Source: Shimia sp. (GTDB lineage: Bacteria; Pseudomonadota; Alphaproteobacteria; Rhodobacterales; Rhodobacteraceae). Taken from it: a DNA stretch of 56,100 nt. Numbering within the stretch: position 1 is the stretch's first letter; each line of letters starts with the position of its first letter. Shown piece by piece: positions 30,898-56,100 of this stretch. The translations under genes and the position numbers were made by a program. Location of the stretch: assembly GCA_024224295.1 (NCBI GenBank), contig JAAENN010000125.1, positions 1 through 56,100 of the forward strand, written 5' to 3'. A model generated the notes under the pieces. That model saw only the letters and a list, made by a program, of their open reading frames with translations. It was not told the origin of the DNA and searched no databases.

Positions 30898-30898
30898 T

Positions 30899-33317: not shown

Positions 33318-36290
33318 GTGTTTACAAAAACCTTGAAACAGAGACTTGGGGCTGCCGTCGCAGCGGCGTCCCTTTTGGTGACGGCGCAGACTGCCACCGC
33401 TCAGGACACAGCCCAAACCACCGCCCCCCCTGCCCCGCAGACGGTCTATGTGTTTGGCAATAGTCTGGTGCATCATCTGACCGACAGCGATGAAACCACG
33501 GTGCCATATTGGTTGAGCCAAATGGCACTGGCGGCGGGTACGGAGTTGAAACTGGACGGGCAATGGGGCTTTCTGCGCGACTTTGCCAAGAGCGAGACAC
33601 CCAGTTCCGGGTGGCGGTTTAAGAACGTGGCGCGTGGCTGGACGCGGGACTACCGCAACTTTGCTGATGTGGACTGGGACACCATTGTGATCACCCCGGC
33701 CAACTTCATTCAGTATCAGAACGCCGACAAAGCCTTTCATGGCGACAACCCCGACAACGCCTCGCCGCTGTCAGCCACTTTGGACGTGATCGACAATATG
33801 CAGAGTGCCGTGGGCCCGGTGCGGATTGCGATCTATGAAGGCTGGGCCGATATGGGCAGTCAGGTCAAAAAGTTCCCGCCCAGTGCGCGGCAGATGCGCA
33901 AGTATCAGCGGTTCAACAGCGGCGACTACCACGACTGGTTTGAGGACTATGTTGATGCCCTGAGCGACGCCCGGCCGGATGCGGAGATTGACCTGATCCC
34001 GGTGGCGAGCACCTTGGCGGAGCTGATCGACGATGGTGTGCTGGATGGGCTGGATGCCGAGGTGTTTTACACCGACGATGCGCCGCATGGCACGCCGACG
34101 ACCTATTTCCTTGCCGCCGCAATCACTTATGTGAGCCTCTATGAGGCGGAATTGCCTTTGGAGCTTGATATTCCCGACACCATCCATGCGGATGTGCGCA
34201 CCTATTGGGAAGCGGTACGCGATGAAATCCACCGACTGGTTCTAAAACCAATGAAACAAGCGGCGGCCCGGGAGGTGCCGTCCGGTGCGCCCTTTCGCAC
34301 GCCGGATGGTGACGCGCCGCAGTTAGCCGGGCTTGGGCTGGCTGATCCGGCGCTGGCCATGGGGCTAAGCGGGATCAGCGATTGGTCCACGCAGCAGCCG
34401 TTTATCAATGTGATGAAAACCGCGCGTCCCTGGGTGGGGCATTTGCCGGGCCAATGGGGCGGCGTGCGTTTTGAAGAGCTGGATGCGCGCGGCTTACTGG
34501 ACGCGGAAGGCTGGATCTGGGGCGTGCCGGAGGACATCGAGTCGGTGGAGGCGCTGATCCTGACCGACCTGCCGGAGGAGGCCAGCGCTCTGGCCGGGCG
34601 CTACCGAGTGACATGGCAAGGTGCCGGGGAGATTGAACTCACCGGACGGGCGCGGGTGACATCAAAAGCGCCGGGGGCAATCTGGTTTGACTTCACGCCG
34701 GGCGAGGGGCCGGTGGGGATCAAGATCCGCCAGCCGGACCCGGATATGACAGGCGATTATGTACGCGACATTCAGGTGATGGCGCAGTCATATATAACGC
34801 TCGCAGAGGCCGGTGCGGTGTTCAATCCGGCTTGGCTCAACGTGGTCGATGACCTGCGCATGGTGCGCTTTATGGATTGGATGAAGACCAACGGCTCCAC
34901 GCAGTCCAGCTGGGAGGGGCGGCCTCTCACGAGTGACTTCACCTATGGCTGGCGCGGAGTGCCGGTGGAGGTGATGGTGCGGTTGGCCAATGAGATTGGC
35001 GCGGACCCGTGGTTCACCATGCCGCATCTGGCGGATGAGGATTATTTGACCAACTTTGCCAGCTATGTGCGCGATCATTTGGACGCCGAACTCAATACCC
35101 ATGTCGAATACTCCAACGAGATGTGGAACTGGGGCTTTGAACAGGCGCAATGGGCCTTGAAAGAAGGCGAGGCGCGTTGGGGCAAAGGCCAAGACGTGCA
35201 GATGCAGTTTGCCGGGATGCGGGCGGCGGAGATGGCGCGCATTTGGGGCGAAGTCTACGACGAGGCCGCTGAGGGGCGGCTGACACGGGTGATTGCGACA
35301 CACACCGGCTGGCCCGGATTTGAAGAGGGGCTGTTGCAAGCGCCGTTATGGCAGGCGGAGGGCAATCCCGCGCCGGTGAGCTTGTTTGAGGCCTACGGTG
35401 TGACCGGGTATTTTGGCGTGACGTTGGGGTTGGAAGATGAGGGTGCGCAAGTGTTGCGCGGCTGGCTGGCGGATGCGCGCAAAAAGGCGGAAACTGCGGG
35501 CGCGGCAGAAGGGCTGCAACGGGCGGCGCTGACGGCATATGTGGACGTGCACGCGCATGATGGCGTTGCGGCGCAGGCGGCAGAGTGGCTGCGCAAGGGT
35601 GAGTTGACTGAACTCACCGGGAAGCTGTTGCCATATCACCGCGATGTGGCCCGCAAGAATGGTCTGAAGCTGGTGATGTATGAGGGCGGCAACCACGCAG
35701 TGGGCGTGGGGATCGAAGCGAATGACGAGGCGCTGACCGCGTTCTTTATGGAATTCAGCACAAGCGCCGAGATGGGCGAAATGTATGAAGAGCTGCTAGC
35801 CGCGTGGCGCAGTTTGGGGGGGCAGAGCTTCAATGCCTTTACCGATGTGGGCAAGCCCAGCAAATGGGGCAGCTGGGGGCATCTTCGGTATTTGGGGGAC
35901 AAAACACCCCGGCATGATGTGCTGATGGATTATAACCTCACAGGGCCACATTGGAGTTCGAACCGCGCGGAAAATGTCTTCTTACACGGCGGGATTTACC
36001 TTGGCGGCGACACATCCGATCGACTTGAAGGCACGGGCAAACGGGATGTGCTTTTGGGCATGGGCGGCAATGATGTACTGGTGGCGCGGGGACCGGGGGA
36101 TCTGCTGCATGGCGGGCCGGGCACGGATCGAGCGATTTTGCCCGGACCACAGAGCGATTACGAGTTCAGCCGCGAGGGCGCGCAGGTGCGGGCCATTGCG
36201 ACGGGACGGAACTATCTGTTGACCGAGATGGAGGCCGTGGCCTTTGAAGAGGCGCCCGCACTGGTACTGCCGCTGAGCGGGCTTTTGTGA
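33318..36290 (+). CDS. Secreted SGNH-like / glycosidase-like / RTX calcium-binding multidomain protein
   Basis: A 990-residue exported protein. After a signal peptide (LGAAVAAASLLVTAQTATAQ) comes an SGNH-hydrolase-like domain with GNSLVHH (Ser52) and DAPH (Asp254, His257), as in DxxH of that superfamily. A middle beta region (about 370-480) follows. Next is a TIM-barrel-like part with the clan GH-A type acid/base HVEYSNEMWNWGF (Glu601) and a later MYEGGNH (Glu789). The C-terminus (about 896-940) has RTX-like nonapeptides (LLGMGGNDVLVARGPGDLLHGG in part), suggesting type I secretion and calcium binding. The GTG at 33318 has GAGGAGG upstream. Adjacent surface glycan genes suggest it binds, trims or deacylates the polymer; this is inference. 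Confidence 0.75.
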   Translation: MFTKTLKQRLGAAVAAASLLVTAQTATAQDTAQTTAPPAPQTVYVFGNSLVHHLTDSDETTVPYWLSQMALAAGTELKLDGQWGFLRDFAKSETPSSGWRFKNVARGWTRDYRNFADVDWDTIVITPANFIQYQNADKAFHGDNPDNASPLSATLDVIDNMQSAVGPVRIAIYEGWADMGSQVKKFPPSARQMRKYQRFNSGDYHDWFEDYVDALSDARPDAEIDLIPVASTLAELIDDGVLDGLDAEVFYTDDAPHGTPTTYFLAAAITYVSLYEAELPLELDIPDTIHADVRTYWEAVRDEIHRLVLKPMKQAAAREVPSGAPFRTPDGDAPQLAGLGLADPALAMGLSGISDWSTQQPFINVMKTARPWVGHLPGQWGGVRFEELDARGLLDAEGWIWGVPEDIESVEALILTDLPEEASALAGRYRVTWQGAGEIELTGRARVTSKAPGAIWFDFTPGEGPVGIKIRQPDPDMTGDYVRDIQVMAQSYITLAEAGAVFNPAWLNVVDDLRMVRFMDWMKTNGSTQSSWEGRPLTSDFTYGWRGVPVEVMVRLANEIGADPWFTMPHLADEDYLTNFASYVRDHLDAELNTHVEYSNEMWNWGFEQAQWALKEGEARWGKGQDVQMQFAGMRAAEMARIWGEVYDEAAEGRLTRVIATHTGWPGFEEGLLQAPLWQAEGNPAPVSLFEAYGVTGYFGVTLGLEDEGAQVLRGWLADARKKAETAGAAEGLQRAALTAYVDVHAHDGVAAQAAEWLRKGELTELTGKLLPYHRDVARKNGLKLVMYEGGNHAVGVGIEANDEALTAFFMEFSTSAEMGEMYEELLAAWRSLGGQSFNAFTDVGKPSKWGSWGHLRYLGDKTPRHDVLMDYNLTGPHWSSNRAENVFLHGGIYLGGDTSDRLEGTGKRDVLLGMGGNDVLVARGPGDLLHGGPGTDRAILPGPQSDYEFSREGAQVRAIATGRNYLLTEMEAVAFEEAPALVLPLSGLL

Positions 36291-36384
36291 CACAGGGTTG
36301 ATGTGAAAGGGGAAATCCCCCTGCCCCGACTTGCACCGATCTGATAGGTTGCGCCAAACGTGACGTCAGAGGCGAGCCATTTCC

Positions 36385-37209
36385 GTGCTGAGCATTCTCA
36401 TTCCGGCCAACAATGAGGCCGCCCATATCGGCCCCTGTTTAGAGGCGGTTTTGGCCTCTGACGGGCCGGAAGTGGCGCAGATTGTGGTGGCGGCAAATGG
36501 CTGTAAAGATGACACGGTGCAGATTGCCGAAAGCTTCGGCACAGCAACTGAGCGCAAAGGCTGGAGCCTCACGGTTCTTGACCTGCCCGCTGTGGGCAAA
36601 ATGGGCGCGTTGAACGCTACTGACGCGGCCGCCAACTTTGGCAACCGCGCCTATCTGGATGCCGATGTTCTGGTGGACCCTGCGTTGATAGGACAGATTG
36701 CCGAGGCGCTGAACACAGACGCCCCAAGATATGCCAGCGGTAAATTGCGGCTCTCACGCGCAAAGACTTGGGCCACGCGGGCCTATGCCCGCACCTACAG
36801 CAAGGTGCCCTTCATCACCCACGGTGTGCCGGGGGCCGGATTGTTTGCGGTGAACGCCACCGGTCGCGCGCGTTGGAAAGAGTTCCCCGGCATCATTTCG
36901 GACGACACCTTTGTGCGGTTAAACTTCGCGCCAGTGGAGCGCATAGGCACCGCAGCGGGTTACGATTGGCCACTGGTTGAGGGATTCGCCGCGCTGGTCA
37001 AAGTGCGGCGGCGCCAAAACGCCGGAGTGAACGAAATTAAGGCACGGTTTCCAGAGCTACTCATAAACGACGACAAATTCACGCTCAGCTTAGGCAGAAA
37101 ACTAACCATGATGATGCGCGATCCTTTGGGCTTTTCGGTCTACGCGGCGGTCTCGATGGTGGTGAAACTTTCGCCGCAGAAATCCAGCTCTTGGGAGCGC
37201 GGCAGATGA
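36385..37209 (+). CDS. Family 2 glycosyltransferase
   Basis: A 274-residue GT2 enzyme with a GT-A fold: LSILIPANNEAAHIGPCLEA at the N-terminus, the donor segment AVGKMGALN, and the DXD-like motif YLDADVLVD. A later EFPGIISDDTFVRL provides the usual acidic ED-like motif for the catalytic base. It lacks multiple membrane spans, so it adds a sugar at the cytoplasmic face of the inner membrane. The start is a GTG at 36385; the stop overlaps the flippase start by 4 bp. Donor sugar unknown. Confidence 0.88.
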   Translation: MLSILIPANNEAAHIGPCLEAVLASDGPEVAQIVVAANGCKDDTVQIAESFGTATERKGWSLTVLDLPAVGKMGALNATDAAANFGNRAYLDADVLVDPALIGQIAEALNTDAPRYASGKLRLSRAKTWATRAYARTYSKVPFITHGVPGAGLFAVNATGRARWKEFPGIISDDTFVRLNFAPVERIGTAAGYDWPLVEGFAALVKVRRRQNAGVNEIKARFPELLINDDKFTLSLGRKLTMMMRDPLGFSVYAAVSMVVKLSPQKSSSWERGR

Positions 37210-38573
37210 GCCGCCTCAGGAACCTGACCCAGGGCAATTCGCTGGCCGCCCGCGCCATTCGCAGTGGCGGCTGGACGATCTTGGGTTATGGCGGGTCACA
37301 AGCGCTGCGGCTGGCCTCCAACCTGATCCTCACACGCCTGCTCTTTCCAGAGGCGTTTGGCCTCATGAGTCTTGTGTGGGTTTTCTTGCAAGGGCTGTCC
37401 AACTTGTCGGACATGGGCGTGACCCAGTCGATCCTGCAAAGCAAACGCGGCGAGCATCGCGCCTTCCTCGACACCGCCTGGACCATACAGGTGCTACGCG
37501 GGGTGTTCCTGCTGATTCTGACATGGGCTTTGGCCGTGCCAGCGGCGGCGTTTTATGACGCGCCAGAGCTGGCCGAAATTCTGCCAGTGGTCGGCCTGAC
37601 CCTGCTGATCATGGGGCTGTTCCCCACCAAAAAGGACAGCGCCAACCGCCAGCTTGCGTTGGGGCGGATCACTTTGATTGATCTATCTGCACAGGTGATT
37701 GGATTGGTGGTCGGCGTGGCGATTGCCTGGGCCACGGGATCGGTTTGGACCTTGGTGGCCAACGCGGTGACCACAACGGTCATGCAGTTGATTTTTTACT
37801 ATATTTTCCTACCGGGCGCGATCAACAAACCGCGCTGGGACAAGCCTGCCGCCGGGGAATTGATTCACTTTGGCAAGTGGATTTTCCTGTCCACAGCCGC
37901 CGGCTTCCTGCTGTCACAAGGTGACAAAATTGTGCTGGGCAAACACCTCAGCCTCGGCGCGCTTGGGGTCTATAACATCGGCTACTTCCTGGCGTCCTTC
38001 CCGCTGCTTCTGGGCGGGATGCTGATGCGGCGGATCATGATCCCGATTTACCGCGAAAAGCCCCCTAGCGAGAGCGCTGACAACCGCGCCAAATTACACA
38101 AGATGCGCATGCTTTTGAGCGGAGGTTTGATGGGGCTTCTGACGCTGTTTGCCCTGATCGGCGTCTGGCTGGTCGCCGCGCTTTATGACCCCCGTTACGC
38201 GCTGGCAGGCGGCGTGGTGGTGCTTCTGGCGGTGATGCAAATTCCGCAAGTGATTGCCCTGACCTACGATCAGGCGGCTTTGGCCGCCGGGGACAGTCGC
38301 GGGTTTTTCATGCTTGCGGCCATACGGGCCACGTTGATGATGGGCGGGTTGATACTTGGGGCCAGCCAATACGGCCTCACCGGTGCCTTGTTGGGCCAAG
38401 GCCTGGCGATGGTTCTGGCCTATCCTGCGGTGGTCTGGCTGGCGCGGGCGCATGATGCCTGGGACGCGCGGCATGACGCGGTGTTCTGTACCCTTGGCAT
38501 CGGTATTGGTGGCCTCGCCTTTTGGCTACATCAGAGCGCGATTGTTAAGCTTTCTGCCCTCAATTTGCCCTGA
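37206..38573 (+). CDS. Wzx-type polysaccharide flippase
   Basis: A 455-residue membrane protein of the MOP superfamily (polysaccharide transport group) with about 12-14 hydrophobic helices. N-terminal pattern RSGGWTILGYGGSQALRLAS and ILTRLLFPEAFGLM is typical of Wzx proteins (WzxC/AmsL type). It should flip an undecaprenyl-diphosphate-linked glycan across the inner membrane. The ATG at 37206 is in the stop of the GT2 gene (ATGA). The PKS gene follows after a 99-bp gap. Confidence 0.9.
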   Translation: MSRLRNLTQGNSLAARAIRSGGWTILGYGGSQALRLASNLILTRLLFPEAFGLMSLVWVFLQGLSNLSDMGVTQSILQSKRGEHRAFLDTAWTIQVLRGVFLLILTWALAVPAAAFYDAPELAEILPVVGLTLLIMGLFPTKKDSANRQLALGRITLIDLSAQVIGLVVGVAIAWATGSVWTLVANAVTTTVMQLIFYYIFLPGAINKPRWDKPAAGELIHFGKWIFLSTAAGFLLSQGDKIVLGKHLSLGALGVYNIGYFLASFPLLLGGMLMRRIMIPIYREKPPSESADNRAKLHKMRMLLSGGLMGLLTLFALIGVWLVAALYDPRYALAGGVVVLLAVMQIPQVIALTYDQAALAAGDSRGFFMLAAIRATLMMGGLILGASQYGLTGALLGQGLAMVLAYPAVVWLARAHDAWDARHDAVFCTLGIGIGGLAFWLHQSAIVKLSALNLP

Positions 38574-38672: not shown

Positions 38673-41600
38673 GTGGACGTGGTGACCAGCCCAACCGACC
38701 AACCGGTCGCAGAAACGGATATTGCCATTGTAGGTATGGCCGCTCACCTGCCCGGCGCGGGAGGGATTGATCAGTATTGGCACAACTTACGCAACGGCAT
38801 CCGCTCCATCCGCAAGCTGAGCGAAGACGAGCTTCTGGCCAATGGCGAAAGCCGGGCGAAGTTGGCACATCGCAACTACGTGCCCGCCGCGGCCACGGTT
38901 GACGGCTTTGCCGATTTTGACGCCGAGTTTTTTGGCCTGTCTCCAAAAGAAGCCGCGATCATGGATCCGCAGCACCGCCAGTTTCTGGAGGTGAGCTGGG
39001 AAGCCTTGGAAAATGCGGGCCACATGCCGGAGCATTTTGGCGGGCCGATTGGCGTGTTTGGTGGCTGCGGCATGGGCAGCTATTTCTATTTCAACATCTG
39101 CTCCAACCGTGATCTGGTGGACAGTACTGGCATTTTCCTGTTGCGTCATACGGGCAACGATAAGGACTTTTTGACCACACGCTTGAGCCACATTTTGGAT
39201 TTGAACGGGCCAAGCCTTGGGGTGCAGACGGCGTGTTCCACCTCGCTGGTGGCGGTGCATTATGCGGCGCAGTCGATCCTGAATGGCGAATGTGACATGG
39301 CGCTGGCCGGGGGCGTGACCCTCGAGCTGCCGCACGGGCGCGGCTATGTGTTTGAGGATGGTGAGATCCTGTCGCCAGATGGCGAATGCCATGCGTTTGA
39401 CCACCGCGCGCAGGGAACTGTGTTTGGCTCCGGTGCAGGTGTGGTTGTGCTGCGGCGGTTGGAGGATGCGATTGCTGAAGGCGATCACATCTGGGCCGTC
39501 ATCAAAGGGTCAGCGGTCAACAATGATGGCAGCGACAAAGCTGGGTATTTGGCACCTTCGGTGGGTGGACAGGCGGCGGCCATCGCGGACGCTATGGCAA
39601 TTGCTGATGTGCCTGCGGACTCGGTGGATTACATCGAGTGCCACGGCACCGGCACCTATCTGGGCGACCCGATTGAAGTCGCAGCGCTGACGGAAGCGTT
39701 TCGCGAGACCACGGAAGAGACCGGGTTTTGTCGCATCGGCTCGGTGAAAACCAACATTGGGCATTTGGATACAGCGGCGGGTGCCGCAAGCCTGATCAAG
39801 ACGTCTTTGGCGCTGCACCACAAAGAGATGCCGCCAAGCCTTGGGTTTGAAAAACCCAATCCCGCGATTGATTTTGAGAGCAGCCCGTTTGCGGTGAACG
39901 CGTCCTTGCGTGACTGGGAGAGCCACAAAGGCCCGCGTCGTGCGGGCGTTAACAGCCTTGGCGTGGGCGGCACCAATGCGCATGTGGTGGTTGAAGAGGC
40001 GCCTGCGCGGGCGGAGAGCCCAGAGAGCGACTGGCCGTTTCAACTGATCGCGGTGTCTGGCCGCTCAACCAAAGCGCTGGACGCCAATGCGGCCAATCTG
40101 GCCGCGCACCTGCGGGCCAACCCGGAGCAACCTCTGGCCGATGTGGCGCATACGTTGCTGAACGGGCGGCGGGCGTTTGAGAAACGGCGTGTGGTTGTGG
40201 CCGAAAGCCATGAACAGGCGGCAGCGTATCTGGAAAGCGGCAATCTGCGGCGGGTGTTCACGCATACGGCGGACGGCGACGCGCCGGAGGTGGTCTTCAT
40301 GTTCCCCGGTGGTGGGGCGCAATATGTGGGCATGGGGTGTGACCTCTTTGAAACCGAGCCGGTGTTCGAAGAATGGATGGAGCGCGGCTTCGCGCATCTG
40401 GCGGGCAACGGCGGCGAAGAATTGCGCGCGCTTTGGCTTGCCGAAGGGGATGCGGTTGCCGAGGCCGAAGAGCGACTGAAACAACCAAGCCTGCAATTGC
40501 CGCTGATCATGATGGTGGAATACGCGCTGGCGCAGCTCTGGATGAGTTGGGGCGTGACACCGGCCGCGCTGGTCGGCCATTCCATGGGCGAAAACACCGC
40601 GGCCTGTCTCGCCGGCGTGATGTCCTTTGAAGACTGTCTGGGGCTGGTGCAGTTGCGTGGGCAGCTGTTTGACACGGTGCCGGCGGGCGGGATGTTGTCC
40701 ATTCCGCTGCCGTTGGCGGAAGTAGAGCCCCACCTGAGTGACGAGATTGATATCGCGTCAGTGAATGCGCCCGCGCTGACCGTTGTGTCCGGGCCGGATG
40801 CGGCGCTGGATGATTTGTCGACCAAGCTGGCGGCGCAGGAGATTGAAACGCAGCGTGTGCCCATCAACATCGCGGCGCATTCACGTATGTTGGAGCCGAT
40901 CCTTGGCCGGTTTGGCGACTATCTGCGTACAATTCAGCTTCACGCACCGCGTGTGCCGATCATTTCGAACCGCACAGGCGCCACGTTGCTGGACAGCGAA
41001 GCCACCGATCCCGACTACTGGGTGGGCCACCTGCGCAACACCGTGTTCTTTGCCGACGACATCACCACCCTCGCGCAGGAAAGCGCGCGGGTGTATCTTG
41101 AAGTGGGTCCCGGCAAGGCGCTGTCGTCGCTGGTGAAAATGCACGGTCAGGTGAAAGCCGACAAGGTGCTGTCTTCGCTGCGCCATCCCGAAGATGACAT
41201 TAGCGATGATGCTTATTTCCTCACCGTATTGGGCCAATTGTGGGCCTGCGGTGTGGCTGTGGACTTTGACCAATATTGGGGAGATCTGTCGCGTCAAAAG
41301 GTGGTGCTGCCATCTTATGCTTTCCAACGCAGCCGCTACTTCATCGAACCGGGCCAGGGTCAGATTGAAGCGCAAGACGAGTTGCTGATGCGGCTCGAAG
41401 ACACTGCCGATTGGAGTTATGCGCCGGCGTGGACACCTCGCCTAGCCGAATGTGAGATCGACATAGACAGCGAGTTAAGCGACGCAGAAAAGCACAGCTG
41501 GCTGATCTTCACCGACCAAGGCGGAACCGGCGCCGCGCTGGCCAAACGGTTGCGCGATGCGGGGCAGGATGTGGTCACCGTGACCACCGGCGACGCCTTT

Positions 41601-44600
41601 TCCGAGACCGGACCAGACAGCTACGCGCTGGCGCCGGAGCGGGGGCGCGATGGCTATGACGCGTTGATCCACAACCTGATGAGCAAGGGCCGCGTGCCTG
41701 ATCGTGTTGTGCATATGTGGCTACTGACCGAAGATGAAAGCCACCGTCCGGGATCAAGTTTTTTCCATCGCAATCAGGAACACGGGCTGATGAGCCTGTT
41801 TTTCCTCGCCCAGGCGGTGAGCGACGAAAACCTGCCGACACCATTGCACATTACTGCTGTGAGTTCCGGCGCAGTGCAGGTGCGCAAAGAGGTGCTCCCC
41901 TATCCGGAAAAATCCACCGTGTTGGGCGCGGTACAAGTGATCGGGCGTGAGTTGCCCGGCACAACTTGCGCGCTGTTGGATGTGGAAGCGCCAACTACGA
42001 AAACGCGCGGCGGGTTGGTCACCAAACTGCTCGAAGACATTCTGGCCACCCCACGCGGACAGATTGCAGCTTGGCGCGGTGAAAAACGCTTTGAGCGCAG
42101 CTATCGCAAGGTGGCAATGGACGGCGCGGAGATACAGGTTTTCAAAGACGGCAGCACCTATCTGATCACCGGTGGCTTTGGCGGTATTGGGCTGACATTG
42201 GCGGAGCGCATGATCAAAGAGGCCAGCGCCAACGTTGTGCTTTTGGCCCGAGACGGATTGCCTGCACGGGAGAGCTGGGCCGACTACCTGCGCGGCCATG
42301 CACCACATGATCGCGTGGCGCAGCGCATTCGCGCGGTGGAGCGGCTGGAAAGCCTAGGTGGCAAAGTGCTGCCACTGGCGGCAGACGTGTGCAACGTTGA
42401 CGAGATGGCGGAGGCTGTAGAGACGGCCCGCGAGGCTTTTGGCGACATCAACGGTGTGATCCACGCGGCGGGCGTGATCGACGACGGTCCGCTACTGGCC
42501 AAAACCTCGGCGAGCATCGACGATGTGCTGGCCCCAAAGCTGCACGGCACACAAGTGCTGGAGAAATTGTTCCCGGATGGCAGCCTCGATTGGCTGGTGC
42601 TGTTTGCGTCCTCCTCAACCGCCACTGCACCTGCGGGGCAAATCGATTATGTCGCCGCCAACGCCTATTTGAACGCCTATGCGCAGTCGCGTCTGACCGA
42701 CAAAACCCGCGTTCGCGCTATCAACTGGGGTCTTTGGGCCGAGGTTGGCATGGCCGCCGAAGCGGTTGCGGCACGACAAGGTCACCTAGTCGACGCACCG
42801 ACCGAGGCAATCGACAATCCCTTACTGCAAGGCGCGGGATTTGATGCGCAGGGCAACCGAATTTTCACCGCCGCCCTCTCTGCCAAAGACTGGATTTTGG
42901 ACGAGCATCGCACGCTGGATGGCGATGCGGTGATGCCCGGCACCGGGTATATTGCGCTCGCGTATGAGGCCTTGAAGGAGCAGGGCGAAACCGCCCCGTT
43001 TGCGTTACATGACCTTTTGTTCCTGCGTCCGATGCGCGTGAATGACAGCGGCACGGAGATGCGATTGCGCCTGATCCGCTCGGATGAAGGCTACCGGTTT
43101 GAGGTGCAAACGGCAGTAAGCTTTGATGGCCGTCGCGGCTGGCAAACCCATGCCGAGGCGCGTCTGGCGCCAGTGCGCACCGGTGTCCCAGCCGTGTTGG
43201 ACCTGAACGCGCTCAAGGCAGACTGCCCCGTGCAGCAAAACGGCTTTGGCGCTGCGTTGAGTGCGCCGCAAGAAGCGCACATGCGGTTTGGCCCGCGTTG
43301 GAAAGTACTGCGCGAAACCGCGCTAGGCGCCCAAAAGGGCCTCGCGCGGCTGAGTTTGGACGCGCAATTTGACGGCGATGAGTTGCAGCTGCACCCGGGC
43401 CTTTTGGACATTGCCACTGGCTGGGCCATGGATCTGATCCCCGGCTATGCGCAGGGCCATTTGTGGGTGCCAGTGGGCTATGACCATCTGGTTCGCCATG
43501 GGGCATTGCCAGCTGAGGTGATGAGCCACGTAACTTTGGTAGAGGGCAGCAGCGACGCAGGTTCGGCGCGGTTTGACGTGGTGCTATCTGATGCCAACGG
43601 CGCGGTGAGCATAGAGGTCAAAGGCCTGTCTTTACGGCAGGTGGAAACCGCGGCGGGCTTTGCCAAGGCGCAACCGTTGAGCAAGGCGGAAGTCACCTTT
43701 GACGAGGACGCACAGGCGCAAGCCCCGCTGTCCGCCGCCGAAGAACGGCTGGCGCACAATCTGTCCCAAGGCATTCCACCGGAGATGGGGGCCGATCTGT
43801 TTGAGGCAGCGCTGCGCGGGGACCGGTCGCAAGTGGTGATCTCTTCGCTTGATCTGGCCGCGCTGATTGCGCAGGCCGAGGCGGGCGCGGAAGAAGACAA
43901 CGGGCCAAGCCAGAGCTTTGAACGGCCGGAGCTGGAAACCGATTTTGTGGCACCAGAAACCGATATTCAGCGTACTTTGGCAGGCTTTTGGCAGGATCTG
44001 TTGGGTGTGGAGCAGGTTGGCATCCGCGACAGCTTCTTTGACCTCGGCGGGCACAGCCTGATCGCGGTGCGCCTGTTTGCCATGGTCAAAAAGGCCTGGG
44101 CGATTGAATTCCCGATTTCGGTGCTGTTTGAGGCGCCCACCATTGAAACCTGCGCCGCGATGATTGCGGAGCGGGTGGGTGACACGGCGCTGGGGGGTGA
44201 GGCGACTGGGGACACTCCTGCGGAAGCAGAGGTGCGCCCACAAAGCCGGTTCACCCATCTGGTGCCGATGCATCAGGGCGAAGGCGGGCATCGTACGCCA
44301 TTCTTCCTTGTGGCGGGCATGTTTGGCAACGTGTTGAACCTGCGCCATCTGGCGCATTTGATTGGCGCGGATCGGCCATTCTATGGCCTACAGGCACGCG
44401 GCCTGTTTGGCGATGCCGCGCCGCATGATGATCTGGTGGAGACCGCTACGGATTACATCGCGGAGATGAAACAGGTGCAGCCGGAAGGCCCTTACCTGTT
44501 GGGCGGTTTCTCTGGTGGCGGTATCACCGCGTATGAGATTGCGCGGCAGTTGGAAGCGCTAGGCGACGAGGTAGCGCTGGTGGCGATGCTCGACACGCCC

Positions 44601-46114: not shown

Positions 46115-49100
46115 GCCTTGATAGTTTCACCAACGCCGCGCCGATGTCTGCCGTGATGATTGGCAACGAAAGTCTGCTGATCCAATGCGCCTCGCTTTGG
46201 CTCGACACCGGAAACACGCTGATCGCTGTGGTGACGCGCGCGCCGGAAATCCGCGACTGGGCCACCGAAGCTGGCTTGCGGGTGATTGCGTCGGACAGTG
46301 ATCTTGCCGCTGAACTGCTGGGGGAGCGGTTTGACTGGCTGTTGAGTGTCGCCAATCTGGACATGTTGTCAGACACCGTGCTGAAGCTGCCCGCCAAAGG
46401 TGCGGTGAACTTCCACGACGGGCCATTGCCACGCTATGCGGGTTTGAATGCACCGGTCTGGGCACGCATGGCGCAGGAGCCGCGCCACGGCATCACTTGG
46501 CACAAGATGGAAGTGGGCGCGGACACCGGCGAGATTGTTGCCCAGCGCATGTTTGACATTGGGCAGGCCGACACCGCCCTGACGCTGAACACCAAGTGTT
46601 ATGCTGCCGCCATCGAGAGCTTCCCGGACGTGATGCGTGCCTTGGGCGAAGACCTCGCCAACACCCGCGCGCAGGACATGAGCCAACGCAGCTACTTTGG
46701 TCGCGCCAAACGTCCAGAGGCCGCCGGGCGGATTGATTTCCGCCGCGATGCGCAAGACGTGGTGGCGCTGGTGCGCGCGCTGGACCATGGCGATTACTTC
46801 AACCCACTGTTTGCCCCCAAAATGGTTGCCGCTGGACGGGTGCTGCTGGTGACATCTGCCGAAGTCGCCGAAAGCGCGGGTCGGGGTGAGCCCGGCGCGG
46901 TGCTATCCGTGGATGAGACCAGTGTGACCGTGGCCTGTGGCCGGGGCGCGATTGTGCTGAGCGGATTGACAGATGGGGCCGGTCAGGAAGAGACCGCCAG
47001 CCATGTGATCCGCGCAGGTGAGCGCCTGCCGCTGTTGGACAAATCCGCCAGCGACGCGCTGACCGCCACCATGACCCCGATTGCCAAAGCTGAGCCGTTC
47101 TGGCGTGCGCGCTTGGCTGAATTTGTGCCCGCCACCTTGCCGCTTATCCGCGGCGCGGGCGATCTGGCGGATATGCGCCAGCTGCCGCTTTCTATTTCTG
47201 AGACTCCCTCCAAGAGTATCCTGACCGCTGTCGCCATTTGGGCGCTGCGGTCAGGCCTTCCGGAGGTCTGTGATGTGGCCTATCGCGGTGCGGAACATCC
47301 GCAAGCGGCAGGCCTGATTTCCCCATGGGTGCCTCTGCGTGTGGGGGCCGAACTGCTGCATGACACGGTGGCCGAGGCCAACACAGCCATGGCGGAGCGC
47401 GTGGCGCAGGCCGATGCCAAAGGCAGCTTTGCCAGCGATTTGATTGCCCGCGATCCTGCACTCTCAGCACCAACGATGCCGGACTTGGCGGTGACAACCG
47501 GCGGCTTGGCAGGCCCCATCGAAGGCGCGTCGATGACCGTGGCGATTGGCGCAACCGGTGCGGTGCTGCACTTTGATGCGGCGCGGATATCCCCTGAACA
47601 CGCCGCGCGTTTGGTAGCGCGCTTGGTATTGATCTGCACACAGATTGGCACAGCGGCCAACGTGGCCGATCTGGACGTGCTGCCCGAGGCGGAGCGCACT
47701 GAGGTGTTGACCACATGGAATGCCACTGAGGCGCCGTTTGATCCCGATTTCACCATGGCGGCACAGTTTGAGGCGCAGGTGGCCAAGACGCCGGACGCCC
47801 CGGCGCTGGTGTTTGAGCATGAGGTGCTGAGTTATGCCGACCTGAACGCCCGCGCCAACCGTGCAGCACATGTGTTGCGCGACATGGGGGTGACCCGTGG
47901 CGCGTTGGTGGGACTTTGCTTGCGCCGGTCGCCGGATTTGGTGGTCGCCGCTTTGGCAATCCTGAAAGCGGGCGGGGCCTATGTGCCGATGGACCCGGCC
48001 TACCCTGCCGATCGTCTGGCCCATTACATCAGTGACAGCGGCGCAAGTGTGATTGTGACACAGGCCGTGCTGACCCGCGACTTGCCCGTGCACAACGCGC
48101 AGGTGCTTGAGATGGATACGGACGCGCGGCTTTCTGCAGCGTCAGCGTACACTCCGGAGGCCATCGTCACCGGCGATGATCTCGCCTATCTGATCTACAC
48201 CTCTGGCTCGACCGGCACCCCCAAAGGCGTGATGGTCGAGCACGGCAATGTCGCGAATTTCTTTGCCGGGATGGACGCGCGCATCCAATATGAGGCGGGC
48301 GACAGCTGGATGGCGGTCACATCACTGTCTTTTGACATTTCGGTGCTGGAACTGTTTTGGACCCTGTCGCGCGGTTTCAAGCTGGTGCTGTCGGGGGATG
48401 AAACCACCACGCAGATTTCGGGTGGCCGTTTGCCAGCCACCGCGGGTGGCATGGATTTCTCGATCTACTACTGGGGCAATGACGATGGTCAGGGCTCCAA
48501 GAAATACGAACTTTTGCTGGAAGGGGCAAAGTTTGCCGACGCCCACGGCTTCTGCGCGGTCTGGACGCCAGAGCGGCACTTCCACGCCTTTGGTGGCCCC
48601 TACCCCAACCCCTCGGTGACCGGTGCAGCGGTCGCGGCAGTGACCAAACAAATTGGCGTGCGGGCGGGATCCTGTGTCTCGCCATTGCACCACACGGCGC
48701 GCATCGCCGAAGAATGGGCGGTGATCGACAACCTCACCAATGGGCGGGCTGGCCTCGCGATTGCCAGTGGCTGGCAGCCGGATGATTTTGTGCTGCGGCC
48801 TGAAAACACGCCGCCGCGCAACCGCGATGTGATGTTTGAGCAAATGGACGACCTGCGAAAACTTTGGCGCGGCGAAGAGGTGGCATTCCCTAAAAATGAC
48901 GGCGCGATGCATCCGGTGATGACACAGCCGCGCCCGGTGTCCAAAGAGCTGCCACTGTGGGTGACCACAGCGGGCAACCCGGAGACATGGAAAGATGCGG
49001 GGCGCAATGGTTGTAACGTGCTGACGCACCTGTTGGGGCAGAGCGTGGAAGAAGTTGGCGCGAAAATTGCGCTCTACCACGACGCGTTGCGCGAAGCCGG

Positions 49101-50772
49101 ACACAACCCGGATGACTTTACCGTCACTTTGATGCTGCACAGCTTTTTGGCAGAAGATCGCGACACCGCCCGCGAGATTGCACGCGAGCCGATGAAAGAT
49201 TACCTGCGCGCGGCGGCTGGCTTGATCAAAAGCTACGCGTGGGCGTTCCCGGCGTTCAAAAAACCCGAAGGCGTGAACAACGCGTTTGAGCTGGACCTTG
49301 GTATTCTGAGCGACGACGAGTTGGAAGAAATCCTTGATTTCGCCTTCCTGCGCTATTTTGAGGACAGCGGGCTGTTTGGCACGGTGGAAGATGCTTTGGA
49401 TCGGGTCGAGCAGGTCAAGCGCATTGGCGTGACCGAGATTGCTTGTCTGATCGATTATGGCATCGACAGTGCGACAGTGTTGGAAGGGCTAAAACCGCTG
49501 GCCGAGGTGCTGAAACGCGCCAATGAAGGCGGCGAGCTGGACCCTGAGGACGTGTCGATTGCGGCACAAATGATCCGTCATAAGGTGAGCCACCTGCAAT
49601 GCACCCCATCGATGGCGCGGCTATTGACCGACAACGAAGAGGCGCGGTTTGCGCTCTCTGGTGTGAAGCAGATGATGGTGGGCGGCGAGGCGCTGTCTGG
49701 CAGTCTGGTGACCGATCTGAACGCAGCCAGCGGTGCCAAAGTGCAAAACATGTATGGCCCAACCGAAACTACCATCTGGTCAACCTCGGCGATGGCGGAT
49801 GCCAGCGAAGGCGTCGCCAACATCGGTGATCCCATTGCCAACACGCAGGTCTATGTGGTGGACGCCTCGGGCGCGCCTGTGCCTGTGGGCGTGGCTGGCG
49901 AGCTGTTGATCGGCGGCGTCGGGGTGACCCGTGGCTATTGGCGGCGGGACGCGCTGACAGCGGAGCGGTTCATTGCCAATCCGTTTGGGGATGGGCGTCT
50001 CTATCGCACCGGCGACCTTGTGCGCTGGCGCGCGGATGGCAAGCTCGACTTCCTCGGAAGGGTGGATCATCAGGTGAAGCTGCGCGGCTATCGGATTGAG
50101 CTGGGTGAGATTGAAACCCGGCTGGAAGAGGTGCCCGGCGTGGCGCAGGCCGTGGTTATGGCACGCGAAGACACCGAAGGCGACGTGCGGCTGGTGGCCT
50201 ATCTGCGTGGTGACGTGCCCGGGGAGGCAGACATTCGGGCACAGTTGCGCGAGCACCTGCCAAGCTTCATGCGGCCACAGCACTATGTGACGCTGAGGGA
50301 CTTCCCGCTGACGCCCAACAAGAAGGTCGATCGCAAGGCGCTGCGGCGTCCTGAGGAAACCCGCAAGATCACCACGCCAAAGGTCGAAGCTGCGGCCCCG
50401 TCTGCGCCTGTGGCAGCGGGAGGCGACATTGCCAAACTGGTGGCAGATGTCTGGGCCGAGGTAATGGGTGTGCGCGAAGTGGTGGCCACCGACAACTTCT
50501 TTGATCTGGGCGGCCACAGCTTGCTGGCGGTGCAGGCCCACCGTGAAATCCGGGCACGGTCAGGTGCAGCGAAGTTGTCGATCACGGATGTGTTCCGCTT
50601 CCCAACGCTAAATGCGCTGGCGGGCCGTGTACAAGAGCTGACCGGCACGCCCAAACCGACGGATGCGCCGGAAGCCAAAGCCGCCGAAGAGGTCAGCGAA
50701 CAAGCACAAAGCCGCGCGGAAACTATGAGCAAACGCCGCGCCATGCGGGCGCGGCGGGGGGCGCGGACATGA
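46111..50772 (+). CDS. One-module NRPS: formyltransferase - half C domain - A domain split by luciferase-like monooxygenase - PCP
   Basis: A 1553-residue protein. Residues about 10-300 are a formyltransferase with Asn100, His102 and Asp138, matching the spacing of the catalytic N/H/D of Met-tRNA formyltransferase. Residues about 325-540 look like the C-terminal lobe of a condensation domain; HHxxxDG is absent. The adenylation domain starts near 545, with A3 ([11 protein letters not shown], about 696) and A4 (FDISVLELF, 741). Residues about 780-1138 are a MupA/Atu3671-type FMN luciferase-like monooxygenase ([21 protein letters not shown]). A-domain sequence resumes at TPSMARLL, then NMYGPTETT (1213). 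The carrier Ser is Ser1470. There is no thioesterase. Predicted substrate by pocket residues: glycine. Confidence 0.92.
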
Positions 50773-51554: not shown

Positions 51555-51576
51555 CAAGACGATATTGAGGACCGGC

Positions 51577-52848: not shown

Positions 52849-53324
52849 CGGCCGCAATCGCGCCACAATTCGACCCGGTTGCGCGGGCTTTTTTGCGAAT
52901 CGCTGCCAACTTTTGGTTGAGTGACGTTTAGTCAGTTTTTCACCCTACGAAACAATCAAAAAGCAGTTTACACCACCGTTTCCAAACGCGAACCACAATT
53001 TGGCAAGCTTGTCACAAATTTTAACCAAGACCTCAAAAAGTATCGAAAGTATAATGCGTCATATCCTTTATTTTCAATTTGTTACGGTAAACTATCCGAA
53101 AGTTAAGGTGGATTTCTGTAAATTTGTGACTAATGTAAGTCCTGGGTGGGCGCTTCTTATGAAGGAGCATCAAAAAAAGCGACGTCGCAAGGACCTATGT
53201 GATCAGCCCCTGCTGCCGGGGTGCTTAATCTAACAAGGTACGTGAGACACACGTTCGGACCTTATCGGATCCGGCGAAGAAACGTTGCGGTTCAATTTGA
53301 TGCCCTTCTGGTTGGGTTACGGGG
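52849..53324 (+). other. 476-bp AT-rich gene-less region before the sugar-phosphate transferase gene
   Basis: From about 52910 to 53130 the composition is markedly AT-rich compared with flanking genes. It contains a perfect TATAAT (53050-53055) without an obvious -35 box. A 24-codon open frame (53159-53233; basic, starting MKEHQKKRRRKDL) has no convincing ribosome site and is probably not translated. The region likely carries the promoter and a long 5' leader for the downstream polysaccharide genes. Confidence 0.5.
52874..52894 (+). terminator. Possible weak terminator behind the Wzz-like gene
   Basis: A short stem CCCG/CGGG (52874-52877 with 52884-52887) is followed by C and six or more T residues. 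The stem is short, so termination would be partial. Confidence 0.4.
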
Positions 53325-53999
53325 ATGACACTGATGGCGCTTTTTTTGCGTGAAGATTTTGAACAGGGCTTTGAGGTCACGCCGGTGCGCTCCAGCGCAT
53401 ATCGCAGCGTGTTCAAACGCGCGTTCGATATCGTGTTTGTCCTGATCATCGCTGCACCGGTGACGCTGGTTGTGCTGCTGCTGGCCTTGTTCGTCTCTCT
53501 AGATGGCGCCTCGCCGTTCTACCGTCAGGAGCGTGTGGGCAAAAACGGCACGCGTTTCTCTATGCTGAAGCTGCGCTCTATGGTGCCCAATGCGGACCGC
53601 AAGCTGGAGGCATATCTGCGTGCCAACCCGGCGGCGCGTCTGGAATGGAACGAGAAACAGAAGCTGGCCCATGATCCGCGCATCACACCGATTGGCCGCA
53701 TCATCCGCAAAACCTCGCTGGACGAGCTGCCACAGTTCTTGAACGTTCTAATCGGCGACATGTCCGTTGTTGGCCCGCGCCCGATGATGCCGGAACAGAC
53801 CGCGCTGTACCCAGGCACCGCCTATTACCGCATGCGCCCGGGTATCACCGGTTTCTGGCAAATTTCTGAGCGTAATGAGTGCTCCTTTGCCGAACGCGCA
53901 GCTCACGACAGCCATTATGACCGGGCGCTAAGTCTGCGTACTGACGTTGCCGTCGTGTGGCGCACGGTGGCCGTGGTGATGGCCGGCACCGGCGTGTGA
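53325..53999 (+). CDS. Priming sugar-phosphate transferase (undecaprenyl-phosphate, WbaP/PssA C-terminal type)
   Basis: A 224-residue monotopic phosphoglycosyl transferase that begins repeat-unit synthesis by moving a sugar-1-phosphate to undecaprenyl phosphate. After a 30-residue N-terminus and one membrane helix (about residues 31-55) come the family motifs PFYRQERVGKNGTRFSMLKL, KTSLDELPQFLNVLIGDMSV and VGPRPMM, then RPGITGFWQIS. Only the catalytic half of WbaP-type proteins is present, as in PssA/ExoY. The ATG at 53325 or 53334 may be used; the latter has better ribosome-site spacing. It fits with flippase, Wzz and Wzy proteins of the locus. Confidence 0.93.
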   Translation: MTLMALFLREDFEQGFEVTPVRSSAYRSVFKRAFDIVFVLIIAAPVTLVVLLLALFVSLDGASPFYRQERVGKNGTRFSMLKLRSMVPNADRKLEAYLRANPAARLEWNEKQKLAHDPRITPIGRIIRKTSLDELPQFLNVLIGDMSVVGPRPMMPEQTALYPGTAYYRMRPGITGFWQISERNECSFAERAAHDSHYDRALSLRTDVAVVWRTVAVVMAGTGV

Positions 54000-54103
54000 G
54001 CGCCACACCCTGACAGTTTGAGACTCGCGCGCTATAGTCATGGCGCGCGTTTTGCGTTTGTGTGGCCCAGACCACGCTGCTCACAAAGGAAGACCTCACG
54101 CCA

Positions 54104-55648
54104 ATGCCCAACATGCTCGCCACGTTGATGCTTATGCTTTGGCCCGTGGTTATTTGGCGGCTGTTTGTCAGCCTGTCGCCGGGACGAGCATTGATCTGGT
54201 CCTTGCTGGGCGCCTATCTCCTGCTGCCCCCACCGCCTGCGGAATTTGATTTCCCGCTGATGCCAGCGCTGGACAAAGGCAGTCTGCCCAATCTGGCGAT
54301 CCTGATCGTGGTGTTCTTTGTCCTTCCGCAACGGCCCAAGTTGCTGCCCGAGAGCCGATTGGCCCGGTTGCTCTTAGGGATCATGATTTTCAGCCCTGTG
54401 ATCACGGTCTTTACCAATGGCGAGCCTCTGGTCTTTACCGATACCTATGTGCGTGGGCTTTATTTTCAGGATGCGATCGCGCAGCCAATCAACCAGTTCA
54501 TTGGCATCATTGGCTTCCTGATGGCGCGCGCCCTGCTGCGCACCCGCGAAGATCAGCGTGACCTGTTGCTGGCGCTGATGATTGCCGGGCTGGCGTATTC
54601 CCTGCCAATCTTGATCGAAGTCCGGCTCAGTCCGCAACTTAACAATTGGGTCTATGGCTACTACCAGCACCTGTTCAGCCAGACCATTCGCGGCAATGGC
54701 TATCGTCCGATGGTGTTTCTGTACCATGGCATCTGGCTCGCCTATTTTGTGCTCACGGCTCTGCTCGCCGCCCTGACACTGTGGAAAGCCGACACCGGTC
54801 GAACACGCGCGAAGTATCTGATTGCCGTGTTTTACCTGGTCGCTGTACTGGTGCTCTGCAAAACTCTGGCGACGCTTGTATATGCCGGTGCGGCGGGGGT
54901 TTTGGTCATCTTCCTCAACGCGCGCACGCAAGTGAAAGTGGCTGCGATCTTGGCGCTGATGATGCTGGCTTATCCGGTGCTCAAAACCTCAGGACTGGTG
55001 CCCAGCGACGCGATGATTGCTCAGGCAGAAAAAGTAAGTGCGGAGCGCGCCCACTCCCTGAGCTTCCGGATTGAGAACGAAGACGTGCTGCTGGACCGCG
55101 CGTTGCAAAAGCCGCTGTTTGGTTGGGGTATCTGGGGCCGAAACCACATTCACAACCCGACTTCCGGCCTGATCACCTCGGTCACAGATGGCTATTGGAT
55201 TATTGTAATCGGTGTCTGGGGTTGGGTTGGCTATATCGCGCAATTCGGCCTAATGGCGTTGCCAATCTTCCTTGTGCATCGTGAGTTGGGACGGATCAAA
55301 GTGGCTGAGCGCGACAGTTTTAAACAAGACGCCTCTTTTGCTTTGCTGGATGAACACCACCTGCAGAAACGTGATGATCGCGGAATCTCCCCTTATCTGG
55401 GGCCGCTGGCTTTAATGCTGGGATTCAACATGATCGACATGTTGCCAAACGCAACACTCACGCCCACTACCTGGCTGATTGCCGGTACGCTTTTTGGTCA
55501 TGCTGAACGACTGGCTCATTTGCGCAAAGGTACGGAATCAGTGTTGCGGCGCAGCCCGATGAGCCGCCGAGAGGATGGGGAAGACGAGGTGACTGCTGAG
55601 GTGGCGATGGACCAACCAGCGCCAGCCAAGCGTCGCACCATCCTGTGA
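54104..55648 (+). CDS. Wzy-like polymerase / O-antigen ligase family membrane protein
   Basis: A 514-residue protein with about ten to twelve hydrophobic segments and a large loop containing ENEDVLLDRALQKPLFGWGI, the pattern of the Wzy_C (O-antigen ligase/polymerase) family. It probably joins repeat units in the periplasm or ligates glycan to an acceptor. The ATG at 54104 is preceded by AAGGAAG at 11 bases; a GTG at 54062 would add 14 polar residues. The charged C-terminal tail is cytoplasmic. The stop is 1 bp from the end of the convergent acetyltransferase gene. Confidence 0.85.
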   Translation: MPNMLATLMLMLWPVVIWRLFVSLSPGRALIWSLLGAYLLLPPPPAEFDFPLMPALDKGSLPNLAILIVVFFVLPQRPKLLPESRLARLLLGIMIFSPVITVFTNGEPLVFTDTYVRGLYFQDAIAQPINQFIGIIGFLMARALLRTREDQRDLLLALMIAGLAYSLPILIEVRLSPQLNNWVYGYYQHLFSQTIRGNGYRPMVFLYHGIWLAYFVLTALLAALTLWKADTGRTRAKYLIAVFYLVAVLVLCKTLATLVYAGAAGVLVIFLNARTQVKVAAILALMMLAYPVLKTSGLVPSDAMIAQAEKVSAERAHSLSFRIENEDVLLDRALQKPLFGWGIWGRNHIHNPTSGLITSVTDGYWIIVIGVWGWVGYIAQFGLMALPIFLVHRELGRIKVAERDSFKQDASFALLDEHHLQKRDDRGISPYLGPLALMLGFNMIDMLPNATLTPTTWLIAGTLFGHAERLAHLRKGTESVLRRSPMSRREDGEDEVTAEVAMDQPAPAKRRTIL

Positions 55649-55649
55649 C

Positions 55650-56100
55650 CTAGCAGCCGTACCCCGGCTTCATCTTCAACACCTTCGCAGGTACACCACC
55701 AACCACAGCCCCAGCGGGCACGTCCCCTGTGACCACAGCATTGGCGCCCACTTCAGCATCCGCGCCAATGGTCAACGGGCCAATCACCTTGGCCCCCGCG
55801 CCGATGTCGACATGGCCCGCCAACACCACCGCGCCTGACAAGGTCACCTGATGCATCAACTGACAGTTCGGGCCAATCGTGGCGTTGGGGTGCACAACGA
55901 TGCCGGTAGGGTGCGGCAGACGCAGACCTCCGGCAATCTGCATATTCAGGTGGAGTTCGGACTGGGTGATCACCGACCAAAACCGGTGCGACAGCACCCA
56001 ACGTTTGGAGGCCAACACACCAAGCACCCCGCCCCGCGCCTTGGCCGCCTGATAGCGGCGCAGCGCGCGCAACAGCTTGGGACCGGGATCCCAGAACCCA
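55650..56100 (-). CDS. Hexapeptide-repeat acetyltransferase, serine acetyltransferase-like (5' part outside window)
   Basis: The frame is open through the right end of the window, so the N-terminus is missing; at least 149 residues are visible. The C-terminal half is a left-handed beta-helix with hexapeptide repeats and the family ending (GIVVHPNATIGPNCQLMHQV, GAGAKVIGPLTIGADAEVGA, VPAGAVVGGVPAKVLK). It resembles the serine acetyltransferase/EpsC group found in exopolysaccharide loci, where such enzymes O-acetylate sugars. Cysteine synthesis cannot be excluded, but the location next to Wzy and sugar-transferase genes favours glycan acetylation. Confidence 0.85.
   Translation of the reverse strand, partial: GFWDPGPKLLRALRRYQAAKARGGVLGVLASKRWVLSHRFWSVITQSELHLNMQIAGGLRLPHPTGIVVHPNATIGPNCQLMHQVTLSGAVVLAGHVDIGAGAKVIGPLTIGADAEVGANAVVTGDVPAGAVVGGVPAKVLKMKPGYGC

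What the first reader, a model, noticed from the sequence alone, without database searches (positions are those of the whole stretch)
33318..56100. A PKS-NRPS assembly line built into a Wzx/Wzy polysaccharide locus
Seen in sequence: GT2 and flippase overlap by 4 bp; PKS, GT2, NRPS and phosphopantetheinyl transferase overlap in series by 4 bp each; Wzz-like, priming transferase, Wzy-like and acetyltransferase genes follow. A glycosyltransferase is translationally locked between the PKS and NRPS. Known: PKS/NRPS loci usually have their own exporters (ABC, MFS, RND), while Wzx/Wzy sets export glycans. Inference: the locus makes a polysaccharide or lipid-linked glycan carrying a small formylated aminoacyl-ketide group, or a glycosylated polyketide-peptide exported by the flippase.
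Basis: partly seen in the sequence, partly recalled or inferred. Interest (0 to 1): 0.92.

Follow-up and report, generated by a model that had tools for sequence, protein, structure and literature searches.

The report
Polyketide-peptide line inside exopolysaccharide gene cluster
Many marine roseobacters carry a small antibiotic-style assembly line together with the genes for one particular surface sugar polymer, which suggests that they decorate that polymer with a custom-made chemical group that is still to be looked for.

Summary
In detail: all four 4-bp overlaps and all gene types are there, and the system is conserved in Rhodobacteraceae. An NRPS orthologue (formyltransferase, truncated C domain, glycine-type A domain split by a luciferase-like monooxygenase, PCP) occurs in 145 of 394 genomes. 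Of these, 137 carry a homologue of this locus's Wzy, against 19 of the other 249; some carry it far away. PKS, GT2, NRPS and phosphopantetheinyl transferase sit together in several arrangements of one Wzx/Wzy gene set. One relative (G104) has homologues of all six glycan families without the NRPS, two more have four, so PKS-NRPS looks like a decoration cassette. An SGNH-like domain goes with it (40 of 57 cassette loci, 0 of 8 cassette-free ones). Published locus tags put a probably homologous Phaeobacter inhibens NRPS nine tag steps from exoYC, a priming transferase whose deletion strongly reduces a biofilm exopolysaccharide; its authors reported no sugar-modification genes there. Best reading: a short N-formyl-glycine-derived ketide acyl group made for the repeat unit of a secreted polysaccharide. 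Chemistry and attachment are inferred. Against it: G217 carries the cassette with no glycan gene among the neighbours tested and no such Wzy. New variant of a known kind.

The parts
33219..36290 (+). SGNH-like (residues ~70-360) + glycosidase-like (~365-910) + RTX-repeat protein; in many relatives the SGNH part is a separate ~310-aa gene after the PPT
   Evidence: weak Pfam only (DUF4886 / Lipase_GDSL_2; RTX 20 bits, below cut-off); the glycosidase label rests on my reading of the sequence, no credible Pfam or PDB match
36385..37209 (+). GT2a, family 2 glycosyltransferase
   Evidence: PF00535 E 4e-12
37206..38573 (+). Wzx-type flippase
   Evidence: PF13440 E 2e-46; ATGA overlap
38673..45107 (+). 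Type I PKS, KS-AT-KR-DH-ACP-TE, one module
   Evidence: KS, AT, KR, ACP and TE motifs in 44 of 44 relatives' PKS checked, DH motif found in 39 of 44
45104..46114 (+). GT2b, rhamnosyltransferase-like GT2 between PKS and NRPS
   Evidence: (TIGR01556 below cut-off)
46111..50772 (+). NRPS: formyltransferase - truncated C - A(1) - LLM monooxygenase - A(2) - PCP
47029..47745 (+). Truncated condensation domain (C-terminal lobe only, no HHxxxD)
   Evidence: profile matches EntF residues 236-452 (E 2e-4) and microcystin synthetase B 407-468 (E 4e-12); no HHxxxD in this stretch in the 51 of 52 relatives whose ORF holds it
48457..49509 (+). LLM monooxygenase inserted in the A domain
   Evidence: TIGR04020 residues 783-1133, 475 bits
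50769..51503 (+). 4'-phosphopantetheinyl transferase
   Evidence: PF17837 and PF01648
51565..52848 (+). Wzz/PCP-like chain-length protein
   Evidence: PF02706 33 bits; TIGR03007 126 bits, below its cut-off
53325..53999 (+). Priming sugar-phosphate transferase (WbaP/ExoY type)
   Evidence: PF02397 E 3e-57
54062..55648 (+). Wzy-like polymerase / O-antigen-ligase family
   Evidence: PF04932 24 bits, below cut-off; homologues in 156 of 394 family genomes
55650..56099 (-). Hexapeptide transferase, cut by contig end
   Evidence: PF00132

Best explanation
The locus makes a Wzx/Wzy-dependent secreted polysaccharide whose repeat unit carries a small acyl group built by a dedicated NRPS-PKS cassette. 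Shown by sequence: cassette and glycan genes are conserved together, in several arrangements, and co-occur also when far apart. Inferred steps: the PPT arms the carriers; the NRPS loads glycine on its PCP, the F domain caps the amine with formyl, and the monooxygenase may hydroxylate the alpha carbon. As there is no complete C domain, the PCP can only be a starter, so the chain passes to the PKS, which adds a malonyl-type unit and reduces and dehydrates it (probably a 4-formamido-but-2-enoyl type chain, hydroxylated or not). The PKS thioesterase releases or transfers it, and it ends as an ester or amide on a sugar of the lipid-linked unit or the polymer. The SGNH protein is the candidate exported enzyme that transfers or trims the group. 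BacT, GT2a, GT2b, Wzx, Wzy and Wzz make, flip and polymerise the unit.
For: Co-occurrence in 394 genomes of 393 genera: Wzy in 137 of 145 NRPS genomes vs 19 of 249 others; SGNH/glycosidase protein 129 of 145 vs 12 of 249. Of 128 genomes with both places entered, 11 have the Wzy on the same contig but >25 kb away (up to 418 kb) and 24 on another contig, some of these only because assemblies are broken. 44 of 57 cassette loci show two or more of six glycan families, 14 all six (loci of very different length, six close Shimia relatives, profiles built from these loci). 0 of 19 control regions around other NRPS genes has a hit of 150 bits or more to those six (3-20 kb each). Cassette-free glycan loci exist. 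SGNH in 40 of 57 cassette loci, 0 of 8 cassette-free ones. Shinella and Aminobacter carry PKS, NRPS and PPT with flippase, Wza and O-antigen-ligase genes. PKS motifs conserved; F-domain N-H-D in 50 of 51 relatives. NRPS directly followed by a PKS or PKS/NRPS gene in Methylobacterium and M344 supports NRPS as starter. P. inhibens exoYC (PGA1_c05260; PMC10984933) and NRPS (PGA1_c05350; PMC4062626) are nine tag steps apart; in G295 BacT is the ninth gene after the NRPS.
Against: No chemistry: no glycan or metabolite structure was seen. G217 has the cassette with no glycan gene among ten credible neighbours and no Wzy match. Eight of 145 NRPS genomes lack the Wzy and 16 lack the SGNH/glycosidase protein (some are fragmentary). 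13 of 57 cassette loci show fewer than two of the six glycan families, and SGNH was not found in 17 of 57. No gene is identified as the transferase onto the sugar; the SGNH role is a guess. Fisher values ignore phylogeny. One relative (G126a) has lost the F-domain histidine and aspartate. P. inhibens itself was not in hand; that link rests on tags, gene order and a primer.
Confidence: 0.55

Rival explanations
1. The assembly line makes the anchor, primer or special lipid of the polysaccharide rather than a substituent on each repeat unit, as has been proposed for the RkpA/WcbR polyketide synthases of capsule loci (proposal recalled).
For: A type I PKS in capsule loci is the nearest precedent (PMC3908369, passages). 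One module can act iteratively. The cassette is tied to the glycan pathway as tightly as in the main reading.
Against: A priming transferase of the undecaprenyl-phosphate type is present, so no other carrier is needed; an N-formyl cap and the lack of an enoyl reductase do not suggest a membrane lipid; KS-AT-KR-DH-ACP-TE plus NRPS is a different architecture from a lone PKS.
Confidence: 0.17
2. A free or glycosylated small polyketide-peptide is made and leaves by the flippase; the polymer genes are coincidental or make a separate product.
For: NRPS and PKS look like natural-product enzymes; a distant branch (G144, M344) sits in PKS/NRPS loci without these glycan genes; G217 has the cassette without glycan genes among the neighbours tested.
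Against: Co-occurrence with Wzy in 137 of 145 genomes, also when far apart; GT2b is shared with cassette-free loci; deletion of the probably homologous exoYC in P. inhibens strongly reduces a lectin-binding matrix polymer (PMC10984933, passages and section 9).
Confidence: 0.17
3. Linkage without function: two neighbouring genomic-island systems inherited together.
For: 16 plasmid records hold most of the NRPS in one place, so joint transfer is possible.
Against: Different gene orders with the same content, co-retention when far apart, none of 19 control NRPS regions with the glycan genes.
Confidence: 0.04

Closest known systems
RkpA/WcbR type I PKS of rhizobial and Burkholderia capsule loci
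   Same: A type I PKS gene inside a polysaccharide synthesis and export cluster (PMC3908369, passages read)
   Different: Here Wzx/Wzy genes, a formylating glycine-type NRPS with a monooxygenase, its own PPT and an SGNH protein. No direct sequence comparison with RkpA was made
P. inhibens DSM 17395 chromosomal exoYC exopolysaccharide locus
   Same: By locus tags and gene order probably the same kind of locus; Wzx/Wzy type; OPX not in the cluster, and here none on the window's contig
   Different: 'Polyketide' does not occur in the text of that paper, and its authors state that no sugar-modification genes were detected
NRPS starter modules with formyltransferase (LgrA) and glycine modules with monooxygenase (MtaG) (both recalled)
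   Same: F-A-PCP starter logic; glycine A domain interrupted by an LLM monooxygenase
   Different: Both features in one protein with a truncated C domain, tied to a glycan pathway
Acylated amino sugars of O-antigens and flagellin glycans (recalled)
   Same: Dedicated acyl group on a glycan
   Different: Those use CoA- or ACP-bound acyl donors, not a PKS-NRPS assembly line (recalled)

Membership tests
Wzx/Wzy-dependent polysaccharide locus | Priming transferase, Wzx, Wzy, Wzz in one locus | tested here: met
   Wzy by a sub-threshold Pfam score but a conserved family
Wzx/Wzy-dependent polysaccharide locus | Outer-membrane Wza/OPX in the locus | tested here: inconclusive
   Whole-genome search found three PF02563 genes, none on the window's contig, but the locus is cut by the contig end. 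Annotated in the Aminobacter and Shinella loci
NRPS starter module with formylation | Formyltransferase N-H-D site, A, PCP, no complete C domain | tested here: met
   activity not testable
Glycine-activating A domain | Specificity code close to known glycine codes | tested here: inconclusive
   DILQMGMIWK read by eye; 32 of 52 relatives read DILQ[M/L]GM, 10 were not fully readable by the script, 10 differ; the glycine codes themselves are recalled
RkpA/WcbR capsule PKS | Orthology to RkpA/WcbR | not tested
   No RkpA sequence was compared
SGNH hydrolase / acyltransferase | Ser of block I and Asp-His of block V | tested here: inconclusive
   Conserved GHSLV and DxIH in the separate ~310-aa form; the window's fused form reads GNSLV and DDAPH; Pfam support weak, no credible PDB match; block names recalled

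The most novel reading that the evidence does not exclude
A modular 'glycan-decorating assembly line': a formyl-glycine NRPS-PKS cassette with its own PPT and an SGNH transferase that has been added to a widespread roseobacter exopolysaccharide pathway, so that a matrix polymer important for attachment and for aggregation with algae carries a non-sugar ketide group on every repeat unit.
Probability: 0.5. Interest if true: 0.85.

Novelty: new variant of a known kind. Interest (0 to 1): 0.75.

Why it matters
The Phaeobacter genome paper seen here lists its PKS and NRPS genes under secondary metabolism, while the polysaccharide paper on the probably homologous locus does not mention polyketides; the genomic evidence says that the two belong to one pathway. 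If true, a widespread group of orphan PKS-NRPS clusters in a major marine bacterial family makes polymer decorations, not free metabolites. It also gives a direct, testable question about the adhesive matrix of roseobacters in algal associations, in a strain in which gene deletions have been made.

Tried and rejected
Structure of the SGNH/glycosidase protein: the AlphaFold model from seven close sequences is useless (mean pLDDT 33) and was not searched. The F-truncated-C model (mean pLDDT 67) showed formyltransferase-fold proteins in the 50 PDB rows listed, so it says nothing on the truncated C domain. Profile searches of the glycosidase-like and SGNH parts against PDB gave nothing credible. 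The other exoYC primers gave no informative match. Motif script: the last two A-code letters printed are one position off (index slip), its F-motif pattern was too narrow (33 of 52) and its HHxxxD stretch missed some ORFs; both were redone by alignment or relative to the A3 motif: N-H-D in 50 of 51, and one HHxxxD in G034 that lies in the formyltransferase part. One search counted five PKS/NRPS neighbours; one (G107) is an over-long ORF call with GT2b in between, so four remain. First Pfam runs on G217 used a greedy ORF caller that picked antisense frames; repeated with codon-position composition. Considered and dropped: siderophore, because the glycan genes are what co-occurs. Ten paper searches (two returned nothing, one search was for locus tags) showed no paper that links a PKS-NRPS to this polysaccharide; most hits were seen as listings only, and the library holds open-licence PMC papers only. 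PMC8739492, PMC11340318, PMC8383342 and PMC5577590 were read in passages only.
Full report
OBSERVATION. The window is one whole contig (C125, 56,100 bases) of a 4.56-Mb genome. The closest relatives of its NRPS in the genome collection are mostly Shimia (Rhodobacteraceae), 81-95% identical in the best tblastn segment. Between flippase and PKS there are 99 bases (38573/38673). The 1023-aa gene at the left edge is part of the system.

ENZYMOLOGY READ FROM SEQUENCE. PKS: KS-AT-KR-DH-ACP-TE. KS, AT, KR, ACP and TE motifs are present in all 44 PKS of relatives checked, the DH motif in 39 of 44, the other five not found by the narrow pattern. NRPS: an Fmt/ArnA-like formyltransferase with the N-H-D triad (the role of the triad is recalled) in 50 of 51 relatives whose ORF covers it, lost in G126a; a truncated C domain that keeps only the C-terminal lobe (profile match to EntF residues 236-452; no HHxxxD in that stretch in 51 of 51 relatives); an A domain interrupted by an LLM monooxygenase (TIGR04020); and a PCP. 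The A code read by eye, DILQMGMIWK, resembles glycine codes (recalled). Without a complete C domain this protein can only start a chain (inference). In Methylobacterium and in Aliiroseovarius M344 the NRPS is followed directly by a PKS or PKS/NRPS gene, which fits that order.

CONSERVATION. NRPS orthologues, full-length or partial at contig ends, were found in 145 of 394 family genomes (E better than 1e-100); a further 16 match at E 1e-60 to 1e-86 over parts only, mostly the second half of the A domain and the PCP. I set this cut after seeing the values. Of the 145, 129 carry the SGNH/glycosidase protein against 12 of 249 others, and 137 carry the Wzy against 19 of 249 (both at E 1e-30 or better). 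The 394 genomes cover 393 genera; the Fisher values (4e-70 and 2e-73) do not correct for phylogeny. I entered both places for 128 of the 137 genomes: 104 have NRPS and Wzy on one contig, 93 of them within 25 kb, 11 further apart; 24 have them on different contigs, which in broken assemblies need not mean distance. In G186 the cassette with Wzz is on one contig (40 kb looked at) and BacT-Wzy-SGNH/glycosidase-GT2a-Wzx on another.

GENE NEIGHBOURHOODS. I mapped 57 loci of relatives with the NRPS (11-48 kb each, several cut short, two each from G126 and G132, six close Shimia relatives; profiles were built from these loci). PKS 53 of 57, GT2b 46, PPT 45, SGNH 40, Wzz 39, GT2a 35, Wzx 35, glycosidase-like 34, Wzy 24, BacT 22; 44 have at least two of the six glycan families (GT2a, GT2b, Wzx, Wzy, Wzz, BacT at 150 bits or more), 13 fewer than two. 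Of the 13, three are a distant branch (G144, M344, and L015 of Nitrospinaceae). Three are Hyphomicrobiales: Aminobacter and Rhizobium BG6 carry flippase and O-antigen-ligase-family genes by annotation, profile or Pfam, Methylobacterium shows only a weak Wzz-like gene. The others are L014, G118, G126b, G185, G023, G285 and G217. G126b has glycosyltransferase, epimerase and GMC oxidoreductase genes beside it; G023 has a priming transferase, a Wzy and a flippase within 12 kb; G285 has a Wzy and a priming transferase within about 22 kb. G217 is an exception: none of ten credible neighbouring ORFs is a glycan gene. Arrangements seen: SGNH/GH-GT2a-Wzx-PKS-GT2b-NRPS-PPT-Wzz-BacT-Wzy as here; Wzy-PKS-GT2b-NRPS-PPT-SGNH-GH-GT2a-Wzx with Wzz and BacT reversed (G302, G278, G295); BacT-Wzz(reversed)-Wzy-PKS-GT2b-NRPS-PPT (G175, G034); and BacT-PKS-GT2b-NRPS-PPT-SGNH-Wzy-GT2a with Wzx further on (Ruegeria conchae).

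CONTROL. In 19 regions (3-20 kb) around other NRPS genes of 16 family genomes there is no hit of 150 bits or more to the six glycan families. Four of them have weak Wzx-like hits (43-69 bits), two weak Wzz-like hits (72 and 105 bits) and one a weak hit to the glycosidase-like profile (107 bits).

A DECORATION CASSETTE. Twelve genomes carry the glycosidase-like protein but no strong NRPS match. I fetched eight of them, 15-20 kb each: G104 has homologues of all six glycan families around it, G189 four, G321 four, G077 two, G257 one, and G193, G215 and G105 none. None of the eight shows the SGNH domain, which is found in 40 of 57 cassette loci. So the sugar pathway can exist without the cassette, GT2b belongs to the sugar pathway, and the SGNH domain goes with the cassette. 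Nineteen genomes in all have the Wzy without the NRPS. G193 has a PPT beside the glycosidase-like gene without the NRPS, which I cannot explain.

LINK TO EXPERIMENT. In P. inhibens the chromosomal exoYC is PGA1_c05260 (Table 1 of PMC10984933; its methods text gives PGA1_c05320). Passages and section 9 read: its deletion reduces attachment and biofilm structure, lectin binding in the matrix was not detected by imaging and significantly lower when quantified, and algal-bacterial aggregates are fewer and smaller; the authors say genes for sugar modification were not detected and the OPX lies elsewhere. PMC4062626 (passages) lists NRPS PGA1_c05350 in the same strain and, in strain T5, PKS Inhi_1972 and NRPS Inhi_1974, one tag between them; the PKS tags printed for the two other strains look swapped to me. 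No P. inhibens sequence of these genes was compared. In G295 the priming transferase is the ninth gene after the NRPS, as nine tag steps would predict if tags step by ten (my inference). The exoYC reverse qPCR primer matched with up to two mismatches in 9 of 115 NRPS genomes tried (of 145); two of these places (G295, G073) lie about 10.5 kb downstream of the NRPS, in G295 inside the priming transferase gene, the other places elsewhere. PMC5429656 (passage) reports PGA1_c05260 as down-regulated by quorum sensing.

MECHANISM. See Best explanation. Shown: gene content, motifs, co-occurrence. Inferred: glycine, formylation, hydroxylation, one extension, transfer to a sugar, SGNH role.

NOVELTY. 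A PKS in capsule loci is known (RkpA/WcbR). A formylating NRPS + PKS + PPT + SGNH cassette tied to a Wzx/Wzy polymer did not show up in ten paper searches of the open library, most hits of which I saw as listings only.

Noticed in passing
L151, L152, L154 (G355, G258, G228): Another kind of NRPS-PKS-NRPS locus lies beside weak Wzx-like flippases (43-69 bits); L155 and L156 have a PKS or NRPS near Wzz-like proteins of 725-763 aa. A second, different PKS-NRPS/glycan link may exist in the family.
   Followed up: no
L118 (G193), around 10-12.7 kb: A phosphopantetheinyl transferase of this cassette type (289 bits) sits next to the glycosidase-like gene in a genome without a strong NRPS match.
   Followed up: no
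L089 (Ruegeria conchae) 5149-6801; L092 (Aliiroseovarius M344) 36407-38008: VPLPA-CTERM exosortase XrtD genes are annotated near NRPS loci of both the glycan-linked and the distant type.
   Followed up: no
window 23224-26621, - strand: Two neighbouring genes with Glyco_tranf_2_4 (PF13704) domains lie about 7 kb left of the locus on the other strand; relation to the locus unknown.
   Followed up: no
window 28447-31699: ZnuA-type zinc uptake genes with a Fur-family regulator and an ABC-3 permease: ordinary neighbours.
   Followed up: no
L091 1-1635 and L142 1-2531 (Paracoccus): A second NRPS gene, followed by a WecB/TagA-type glycosyltransferase gene, is annotated in the same Paracoccus glycan loci.
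   Followed up: no
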